Below, piece after piece: positions 1-1,314 of a stretch of 64,000 nucleotides of DNA. The position numbers and the translations under genes are program-made. Position 1 is the first letter of the stretch, and each line of letters starts with the position of its first letter. This DNA comes from Psychroflexus sediminis (lineage in GTDB: Bacteria; Bacteroidota; Bacteroidia; Flavobacteriales; Flavobacteriaceae). The notes below the pieces were generated by a model that had not been told where the DNA came from, searched no databases, and was given only the letters and a program-made list of their open reading frames with translations. The stretch spans positions 1-64,000 of the forward strand of contig NZ_FNCW01000003.1 of the NCBI RefSeq assembly GCF_900099815.1. The letters are read 5' to 3'.

Positions 1-120
1 AATAGATTGTGGGTGATTATCCAGAACACCTCTGTTTTTAACTTGTACATCATTGCTGTTCAAACAGCAATAATCTAAAGTGTCTTTTGAAATGTCAATT
101 CCTGTAACAATATTTTCCAT
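1..120 (-). CDS. IS110 family transposase, N-terminal fragment (cut by window edge)
   Basis: Reading from the ATG complementary to 118-120, the frame is open to the window edge (40 residues). It begins MENIVTGIDISKDTLDYCC. The GIDISKDTLD segment is the first beta strand of the RuvC-like DEDD domain of IS110 transposases, with Asp9 as the first catalytic acidic residue. These recombinases excise and insert the element through a circular intermediate and are guided by a structured RNA from the element's non-coding end. The serine-containing Tnp domain expected in the C-terminal half is outside the window, so intactness cannot be judged. No frameshift is seen in the visible part. Confidence 0.85.
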   Translation of the reverse strand, partial: MENIVTGIDISKDTLDYCCLNSNDVQVKNRGVLDNHPQSI

Positions 121-172
121 AACTTTGAATTAGCTATTAAAAACCTGAAGAACCAATAGGTCTGAGTACTAA

Positions 173-357
173 CGCTATTAATAAGCCTAAAAGCTTTACA
201 TTCTAAATGGTACCAAAACCTAAAGAGGGTGCAAGGACTAATGCTCGATATGAAGCTTAAATTTCAAGAGTCGAGATAGTTCACCTTGCTCCTCTGGTTT
301 TTCAGAAATTTAATATGATTAAACTTCTTATAAATATAAAATGTAAAACTAATAGCG
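173..357 (-). ncRNA. candidate IS110 bridge RNA (nested stem structure upstream of the transposase)
   Basis: On the transposase strand the leader folds into nested stems, all seen directly. The outer stem is CGCTATTA 173-180 with TAATAGCG 350-357. The next is TTTACATT 195-202 with AATGTAAA 340-347. A 16-bp interrupted stem pairs AAACC 216-220, AGAGG 224-228 and GCAAGG 231-236 with CCTTGC 284-289, CCTCT 291-295 and GGTTT 296-300. The apical part pairs CTCGA 244-248 with TCGAG 271-275 and TGAA 251-254 with TTCA 263-266. GCTATTA recurs at 133-139 and could compete with the outer stem. IS110-group elements encode a bridge RNA at this position; the assignment here is inferred from position and fold. 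The loops that would pair with target and donor DNA cannot be assigned without the element ends. Confidence 0.5.
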
Positions 358-492
358 CAGTCGAGAGGTTTTTAGACAGAAGCAATTAAATTGAAAACCC
401 GGTAGAACATTCATAGGATATTTCTTAGTGTGGAGTCTTTACTTATATTCAAAATTATAAAAACAAATTAGTAAATTGCTTTCAAAAAATTT

Positions 493-747
493 ATGACTTC
501 TGAAGCTATACAAGCGCGTTTAAAGCAAATCGTAAAACCTTATGTCAACAATCAGGAAAATTTTGAAAATCTAAGCCCTGAATCTAACTTCATCAATGAC
601 CTTGAAATCAATTCTGCTAATCTGGTGGACATCGTGCTTGATGTTGAGGATGAATTCGACATTCGTATTGAAAATGACGATATGGAAAAAATGACCGATG
701 TAGAAACTACTGTTGAGGTCATTCAAAATAAACTGAAAGCAAAGTGA
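493..747 (+). CDS. acyl carrier protein
   Basis: An 84-residue acidic four-helix carrier protein that holds acyl or polyketide intermediates on a phosphopantetheine arm. The attachment site is Ser41 in EINSANLVDI, followed by the typical recognition helix with VLDVEDEFDI. The usual DSL tripeptide is degenerate (N-S-A), which argues against this being the housekeeping fatty-acid AcpP and for a specialised carrier. The stop overlaps the GTG start of the phosphopantetheinyl transferase gene by 4 nt, so carrier and activating enzyme are translationally coupled. In flavobacteria such pairs occur in flexirubin or aryl-polyene pathways. No other gene of such a cluster is visible because the IS110 element lies immediately upstream. 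Function as a carrier is secure; the pathway is not. Confidence 0.88.
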   Translation: MTSEAIQARLKQIVKPYVNNQENFENLSPESNFINDLEINSANLVDIVLDVEDEFDIRIENDDMEKMTDVETTVEVIQNKLKAK

Positions 748-1265
748 TTGGGAATGACATCGTCGATTTAGCTAAGGCCAAGGAAGAGTCAAACATTTTT
801 CGGCCTCGATATCTTCAAAAAGTCAGTTCCCCCGAAGAAATCGAACGCATTTTATCTGCTACCGATCCCGTGAAGTGCTTCTGGAGAATGTGGACGATGA
901 AAGAAAGTGCTTATAAAGCATTTCAGAGACAGTTTGATCTAAAACCGGTGTTCAATCCATTTGCTTTTACCTGTCTTTTTGAAGATTCTGAATTTGGAAC
1001 AGTGGATTTTCGTGATCATCAGCTTGCTATTAAAACCCTTCAGACCGAAGATTTCGTCTATTCTGAAGTCTTGGATAATGAACATAATCATAATTTTTTT
1101 GGCGGGAGTTGCGATTTTCTTTTGAAGGTCAAAAATCAGCTCAATCTTCCATCGCTTCCAAAATTCACAAAAACAGAACTGGGTCTGCCAGTCTTAAGTC
1201 TGGCAGATAAAATTTCGCCTGTTTCAAAAACCCATCACGGCAAATTCCAAGCCTTTCAGTATTAA
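744..1265 (+). CDS. 4'-phosphopantetheinyl transferase superfamily protein
   Basis: A 173-residue enzyme predicted to transfer phosphopantetheine from coenzyme A to the serine of a carrier protein, most likely the ACP encoded just upstream. It shows the two hallmark motifs: GNDIVDL at residues 3-9 (Mg-binding Asp) and WTMKESAYKAF at 50-60 (catalytic Glu/Lys). It is longer than AcpS (about 120 residues) and shorter than two-domain Sfp enzymes (about 220). The GTG start is supported by the GTGA overlap with the ACP stop and by the motif beginning at residue 3. A 7-bp palindrome at 1185-1206 lies inside the coding region and is probably incidental. Confidence 0.85.
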   Translation: MIGNDIVDLAKAKEESNIFRPRYLQKVSSPEEIERILSATDPVKCFWRMWTMKESAYKAFQRQFDLKPVFNPFAFTCLFEDSEFGTVDFRDHQLAIKTLQTEDFVYSEVLDNEHNHNFFGGSCDFLLKVKNQLNLPSLPKFTKTELGLPVLSLADKISPVSKTHHGKFQAFQY

Positions 1266-1314
1266 GAATTTAATAAAGAATGCGTCTCTGGTACAATTCA
1301 TGCAATTGGTTTAT

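What the first reader, a model, noticed from the sequence alone, without database searches (positions are those of the whole stretch)
121..400. Candidate bridge RNA in the non-coding end of an IS110 element
Seen: five nested complementary segments on the transposase strand (8 + 8 + 16 + 5 + 4 bp, positions in the feature entry) lie directly upstream of an IS110 transposase start. Known: IS110-group recombinases use a bridge RNA encoded in the non-coding end before the transposase gene, with separate loops that pair with target and donor DNA. Inference: this is such an RNA, in a flavobacterial element. The GCTATTA segment occurs three times, so the outer stem has two competing partners.
Basis: partly seen in the sequence, partly recalled or inferred. 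Interest (0 to 1): 0.75.

Follow-up and report, generated by a model that had tools for sequence, protein, structure and literature searches.

The report
Bridge RNA of a repeat-targeting IS110
The end of this mobile element encodes a guide RNA that pairs with the element's own ends and with a short palindromic repeat scattered through the host genome; it is a well-supported new example of a mechanism described in 2024, with one unusual feature in how the target is read.

Summary
The window begins inside an IS110-group element at a contig end. The element stops at base 355; bases 356-400 are host DNA. Its left non-coding end (121-355, minus strand) has the layout of a bridge RNA with a target-binding and a donor-binding loop. 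The left target guide matches 8-9 of 11 flank bases in 6 of 6 copies; the right one matches the core plus CGA in 4 of 4; donor guides match the element's own ends. Stems covary over 46 distinct sequences (89.8% of cells paired, shuffles 69.1%). Target guides fit their own flanks far better than other elements' flanks (0 of 20,000 permutations, either side). A congener has the orthologous site without the element. The 'outer stem with two partners' is a donor guide plus an unconserved copy. The target is an arm of a REP-like palindrome, as for IS621. Unusual: left-guide pairing stops at -4 in 4 of 4 subclade members, against -1 or -2 in 18 of 22 other relatives, and one genome holds copies at 3- and 4-base spacings. 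New member of a known kind.

The parts
1..120 (-). First 40 codons of the IS110 transposase; the rest is off the contig end
   Evidence: Translation; same start at C15, C35, C32; C-terminal pieces at four other contig ends
121..355 (-). Left non-coding end (LE) of the element, core included
   Evidence: Six own copies; orthologous site without the element in G002
354..355 (-). Core dinucleotide CT
   Evidence: CT at the left junction in 6 of 6 and at the right junction in 4 of 4
356..366 (-). Left target half-site TCTCGACTGCG (host DNA)
344..351 (-). Half of a junction promoter: -7 box TAGTTTTA
   Evidence: TAnnTTWR at this offset in 19 of 22 distinct junctions, TTG 19 nt before the core in the RE in 17 of 22
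304..328 (-). 5' hairpin of the RNA
   Evidence: Sequence complementarity; not part of the covariance test
284..294 (-). Target-binding loop stem, 5' arm
   Evidence: Covariation, helices 1 and 2
225..236 (-). Target-binding loop stem, 3' arm
268..276 (-). Left target guide UCUCGACUC
   Evidence: 8 of 11 flank bases in 2 copies and 9 of 11 in 4 copies, plus a wobble at -2
244..249 (-). Right target guide AUCG plus core complement AG
   Evidence: Pairs with CT-CGA in 4 of 4 right flanks, with CT-CGAT in 1 of 4
241..243 (-). Handshake guide of the target loop, CAU, pairs with donor ATG
   Evidence: 26 of 26 elements with a known RE follow the rule
210..221 (-). Donor-binding loop stem, 5' arm
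   Evidence: Helices 5-7
158..169 (-). Donor-binding loop stem, 3' arm
   Evidence: Helices 5-7
199..206 (-). Left donor guide UUAGAAUG, identical to the RE end
183..196 (-). Hairpin inside the donor-binding loop
   Evidence: Helix 8
175..181 (-). Right donor guide, complementary to the LE start CTATTA
173..174 (-). Handshake guide of the donor loop, CG, complementary to target CG at -2, -1
   Evidence: Sequence; inference from the IS621 scheme
133..139 (-). Second TAATAGC copy, taken as chance
   Evidence: Not in L071, L073, L017
145..154 (-). 3' arm of a possible stem closing both loops (with 296-305)
   Evidence: In the MFE fold; too little variation to test

Best explanation
Window 121-355 (minus strand) is the left non-coding end of an IS110-group insertion sequence and encodes its bridge RNA. 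Proposed cycle: the recombinase excises the element as a circle. Joining right end to left end completes a Bacteroidota-type promoter across the core, and the RNA is transcribed from the left end. Its target loop pairs with TCTCGACT..CG-CT-CGA, one arm of a REP-like palindrome. Its donor loop pairs with the junction TTAGAATG-CT-ATTA. The recombinase exchanges strands at the CT core, helped by handshake guides that pair with the other DNA. Shown by sequence: boundaries, guides, covarying structure, guide-flank matching among relatives, orthologous site without the element, promoter halves. Inferred by analogy with IS621: transcription, protein binding, circle formation and the order of steps.
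For: Common left end in six own copies and common right end in four. Orthologous site without the element in G002. All four guides in order in the own RNA; 0 of 20,000 dinucleotide shuffles hold all four. Covariation on 46 distinct sequences and, without fitting, on 39. Target guides fit their own flanks: n = 33 left, n = 24 right, 0 of 20,000 permutations each. Handshake rule in 26 of 26. Junction promoter halves in 17 of 22 and 19 of 22. Recombinase: own C-terminal piece matches PF02371; the 86%-identical relative L071 has PF01548 and PF02371, passes the NCBIfam 'IS110 family RNA-guided transposase' cut-off (200 bits, cut-off 140), and is nearest to IS621 and ISCro4 among solved chains.
Against: No RNA data. 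The middle of the own transposase is not assembled, so an intact gene is not shown. G002 has TT where the own core is CT, and about 206 nt of the own right flank next to the core do not align with G002. Left guides do not pair with the core as in IS621. 9 of the 57 loci given to the model had no match at E <= 0.01. 7 of 33 elements have a left-guide run under 6. No Rfam match at E <= 1.
Confidence: 0.93

Rival explanations
1. The folded region is a regulatory leader of the transposase mRNA (ISPpu9, also in REPs, is controlled by two small RNAs and its leader), not a guide RNA.
For: It lies directly upstream of the gene on the same strand. ISPpu9 regulation is known to me only from the start of the abstract in a listing (PMC8450116).
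Against: A leader does not explain why loop bases follow the flanking DNA element by element, nor the handshake pairs with the far end of the element (26 of 26). Both roles could coexist.
Confidence: 0.05
2. The repeats and stems are a DNA-level feature: one long nested hairpin, as first drawn, recognised as cruciform or terminator.
For: Fold of 121-400 is more stable than all 200 shuffles.
Against: Its outer helices use host DNA; its second partner copy is not conserved; the conserved architecture is two separate arms.
Confidence: 0.02
3. The element is a dead remnant: the RNA was once a bridge RNA but no copy is active now.
For: Broken relatives occur in congeners (L016, L017, L018, L019). 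The own gene is not assembled through.
Against: Own copies are 99-100% alike at six LE and four RE sites, which suggests recent movement. The assembled parts have no stops.
Confidence: 0.1

Closest known systems
IS621 bridge RNA and recombinase (PMC11208160: sections 5, 6, 7, 12 and passages; PMC11208158: passages)
   Same: IS110 group, RNA from the LE, two loops with left and right guides, CT core, handshake guides, promoter across the RE-LE junction, insertion in REP elements
   Different: Promoter of the Bacteroidota type; left guides do not pair with the core; left target guide stops at -4; long left half-site; a possible extra stem closing both loops; different repeat family
seekRNA of IS1111 and IS110 elements (PMC11187229: abstract start and passages)
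   Same: RNA from the long non-coding region that matches both strands of the target; natural retargeting between relatives
   Different: There ISEc11 and ISEc21 stand for the two families; here the RNA lies upstream of the gene, as in the IS110 family
REP-recognising insertion sequences such as ISPpu9 and ISPa11 (PMC1525189: abstract)
   Same: Insertion into repetitive extragenic palindromes
   Different: Those hosts are Pseudomonas and Sinorhizobium with other repeats; here the repeat is TCTCGACTNCGCTCGA and the host is Flavobacteriaceae-like (inferred from named relatives)

Membership tests
IS110 group with LE-encoded bridge RNA | C-terminal Transposase_20 domain (PF02371) | tested here: met
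   Own C-terminal 105 aa: 50.4 bits, cut-off 21.3
IS110 group with LE-encoded bridge RNA | N-terminal DEDD domain (PF01548) | tested here: inconclusive
   Own 40-aa fragment too short, no hit; the relative L071, 86% identical over the C-terminal 105 aa, has it at 94.2 bits
IS110 group with LE-encoded bridge RNA | DEDD and serine active-site residues | not tested
   No residue-level check was made
IS110 group with LE-encoded bridge RNA | LE much longer than RE | tested here: met
   LE 235 nt (window 121-355), RE 25 nt after the stop codon with core
IS110 group with LE-encoded bridge RNA | Two-loop RNA structure conserved by covariation | tested here: met
IS110 group with LE-encoded bridge RNA | Guides complementary to target and to own ends | tested here: met
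IS110 group with LE-encoded bridge RNA | Shared core dinucleotide at both junctions and in the target | tested here: met
   CT in 6 of 6 left and 4 of 4 right junctions; TT in the orthologous G002 site
IS110 group with LE-encoded bridge RNA | Promoter across the RE-LE junction | tested here: met
   Motif level only:
IS110 group with LE-encoded bridge RNA | RNA is expressed, binds the recombinase and is needed for recombination; circular intermediate | not testable with these tools
   Needs experiments
IS621 guide geometry (a detail of one element) | Core included in all four guide pairings | tested here: not met
   Right guides include it, left guides do not
IS621 guide geometry (a detail of one element) | Handshake guide of the target loop pairs with the donor | tested here: met
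   26 of 26 elements with a known RE; 11 more without one
IS1111 group | Bridge RNA in the RE | tested here: not met
   RE is 25 nt; the RNA is in the LE
IS1111 group | Subterminal inverted repeats of 7-17 bp | not tested
   Not searched for

The most novel reading that the evidence does not exclude
A spacing-tolerant bridge RNA subtype: the left target guide reads only the distal part of the left half-site, to -4, and the three bases next to the core are read, if at all, by the handshake guide of the donor loop. One RNA could then use REP-like repeats in which the stretch after TTCGAC is four bases (TTCGAC-TNCG-CT) or three (TTCGAC-AGG-CT). Within the subclade the target guides would have drifted with the host's repeat dialect (TCTCGAC..CTCGA here, TTCGAC..CTCAG elsewhere).
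Probability: 0.4. Interest if true: 0.5.

Novelty: new member of a known kind. Interest (0 to 1): 0.38.

Why it matters
It is a clear natural test of the bridge RNA model in what appear to be Bacteroidota: guides, handshake bases, donor ends and junction promoter line up, and relatives show natural retargeting. The unpaired stretch next to the core and the mixed 3/4-base spacing suggest that the left-guide register can be looser than in IS621, which matters for predicting targets and designing bridge RNAs. The target repeats themselves deserve study.

Tried and rejected
The inner 5-bp helix: taken as a by-product of guide sequence, though keeps a 4-bp version. RNAalifold on the four-row alignment gave an outer AACC/GGTT helix in place of the donor stem, with gaps misplaced in the target stem; I replaced it by a hand-written structure tested on relatives. 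Rfam: nothing at E <= 1 over window 1-1300. Viral contigs: 6 candidate stretches, none confirmed, and no match to a donor-loop pattern. Plasmids: 8 records, each under 60% identity. No close RE in G024 at E <= 1e-10, the best match there being 28% identical, so its right target is unknown. L196 seemed an LE match beside a GIY-YIG gene but overlaps the gene; taken as chance. A short mobile form for L016 was considered; a remnant is simpler. A stem closing both loops is left open.

Rows kept or dropped: 54 of 88 elements had both anchors, 39 distinct; L027 and L142 look mis-anchored but were kept there and dropped from the guide tests (37 left). In one search, 33 of 37 had an LE boundary and 24 a right flank of 15 nt or more (26 had an RE, L116 and L134 too short); L043 and L079 probably have a wrong LE boundary and were kept. 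In some searches the LE pattern already fixes TTAG.TT, so only the last two letters of the -7 box and the RE TTG are independent evidence. In one search I gave 57 loci of my choice out of those held. In one search the 22 relatives are those with a run of 6 or more; 7 others were left out.

Full report
Setting. The window is the start of contig C25 of an unnamed 2.97 Mb genome in 36 contigs. Its first 120 bases encode, on the minus strand, the first 40 residues of an IS110 transposase. The rest of the gene is missing because the contig ends there. A DNA search of the same genome found the left end (LE) at six places (C25, C15, C35, C32, C12, C20; 99-100% identity, rounded), all matching up to the same base, 366. 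A search with a relative's transposase found four copies of the other end, at C8, the far end of C15, C31 and C28.

Boundaries. On the transposase strand the left junction reads TCTCGACT[G/C]CG-CT-ATTAGTTTT in 6 of 6 copies, and the right junction TTTTTAACTTAGAATG-CT-CGA in 4 of 4; the flanks beyond differ. Window 367-900 matches a congener, G002, over all 534 bases at 84%, and there the site has no element: TCTCGACTGCG-TT-CGAG. The right flank at the end of C15 matches the same G002 locus at 88.9% over 999 nt, starting about 206 nt from the core. So the end of C15, the element and the start of C25 belong together, the element ends at window 355, and 356-400 of the finding is host DNA. Two blemishes: the G002 core is TT, and the own genome has about 206 nt beside the right junction that do not align with G002.

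Structure. Window 121-344 folds into two arms of bridge RNA type. I aligned own, L071 (Wocania ichthyoenteri), L073 (Kaistella solincola) and L017 (a decayed copy in G007), wrote the structure by hand without guide pairings and built a covariance model. Over 57 chosen loci it matched 48 at E <= 0.01, four of them its seed. On 46 distinct rows 89.8% of cells pair, against 69.1 +/- 0.7 when shuffled and at most 47.6 when slid; 300 cells are changed on both sides against 82.5; the covariation score is 0.575 against 0.198. That alignment is fitted to the structure. A count without fitting, using two sequence anchors, gave 379 of 429 cells paired in 39 distinct elements, against a shuffle mean of 288.7 and maximum of 315 in 2000.

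Guides. In the own LE the left target guide lies at 276-268, the right target guide at 249-244, the left donor guide at 206-199 and the right donor guide at 181-175, in that order. None of 20,000 dinucleotide shuffles held all four at the observed lengths; the product of the single rates is 8.8e-07. Across relatives the left target guide matches its own flank (n = 33, mean longest run 6.85) better than other flanks (3.40), and the right one likewise (n = 24, 4.00 against 3.02); 0 of 20,000 permutations reached either value; without the own subclade the left result stands (n = 29, 6.83 against 3.42). The three bases after the right target guide complement the three donor bases before the core in 26 of 26 elements with a known RE, 20 as UAU/ATA and 6 as CAU/ATG; 11 had no RE. 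This is the handshake pattern described for IS621 (PMC11208158, passages). Donor guides change with element ends: UAAUAG with CTATTA here, UAAAGG with CCTTTA in many others, UAAGAG with CTCTTA in L104.

Promoter. In 17 of 22 distinct junctions the RE carries TTG starting 19 nt before the core (0.38 of 22 expected from base composition), and in 19 of 22 the LE carries TAnnTTWR at one offset (9 of 22 the full TAnnTTTG). TAnnTTTG is the flavobacterial sigma-A -7 box, at -12 to -5 (PMC9723704, passages); the -33 TTG is recalled, not read. The halves meet only when the ends are joined. From this I place the RNA start near 339, by inference.

Target. TCTCGACTNCGCTCGA occurs exactly 9 times in the own genome and 11 times with up to one mismatch; the reversed control gave 1. 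Several sites are inverted pairs about 10 nt apart, so it is a REP-like palindrome. It occurs in 23 of 27 genomes of the genus, with 1 control hit in all; the related TTCGACTNCGCTCAG in 19 of 27, with none. The own genome holds 9 and 1 of the two forms; G024, whose element has UUCGAC and CUGAG guides, holds 0 and 3. Two genomes are too few to call this adaptation.

What is unusual. The longest left-guide match ends at -4 in 4 of 4 subclade members, but at -1 or -2 in 18 of 22 other relatives with a run of 6 or more. In G024 three LE copies, identical over the 75 nt that all share, sit at TTCGACAGG-CT, TTCGACTGCG-CT and TTCGACTTCG-CT. Two of them reach a contig end before the guide, so sameness of their guides is inferred. 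Four subclade loci have the 3-base form (L017, L073, L024, L186); the six own copies, L071, L016, L020, L025, L188 and L214 have the 4-base form. An unoccupied 3-base repeat turned up in 1 of 246 loci in hand, which were not chosen for this, so later deletion is not excluded.

Verdict on the finding. The 'three GCTATTA' observation is true and useful, but it shows a donor guide, not a stem.

Literature. Bridge RNAs, their guides, the junction promoter and REP targeting are described (PMC11208160, sections 5, 6, 7 and 12). A search for IS110, bridge RNA, Bacteroidota and Flavobacteri (three of four, from 2023) gave one paper without the term bridge RNA. 'Bacteroid' and 'Flavobacter' do not occur in the held main text of PMC11208160. 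Its supplements were not open to me, so this element or a relative may be listed there.

Noticed in passing
L221 (G004:C9), L226 (G013:C5), L227 (G005:C21), L229 (G008:C4), L237 (G007:C12): The target repeat is clustered around a small GIY-YIG nuclease gene (PF01541, E = 6e-16 for L221). Of 33 stretches that I picked, GIY-YIG is present in 4 of 5 with at least 4 exact repeats, 0 of 1 with 3, 1 of 10 with 2, 0 of 15 with 1, and 0 of 2 with none. It recalls REP repeats with their tyrosine transposases. Among the 12 listed of 41 papers and the 10 none was seen to describe such a link.
   Followed up: partly
L016 (G003:C12), L018 (G002:C22), L019 (G011:C1), L186 (G202:C13): Left-end fragments of related elements without a gene directly behind them; L016 may also keep a few bases like the right end.
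   Followed up: partly
L001, L002 (G000:C26) and L035, L037-L039 (C13, C10, C11): Other, distant IS110-family genes in the own genome, several at contig ends; both ends of the 12.7 kb contig C10 carry one.
   Followed up: no
window 493-1265: Next to the insertion lie two open frames that look like an acyl carrier protein (84 aa) and a phosphopantetheinyl transferase (173 aa); named from sequence, not tested.
   Followed up: no
L071:2338-3312: The transposase gives a weak match, below the cut-off (27 bits, cut-off 100), to the NCBIfam TIGR-Tas endonuclease model in its C-terminal half.
   Followed up: no
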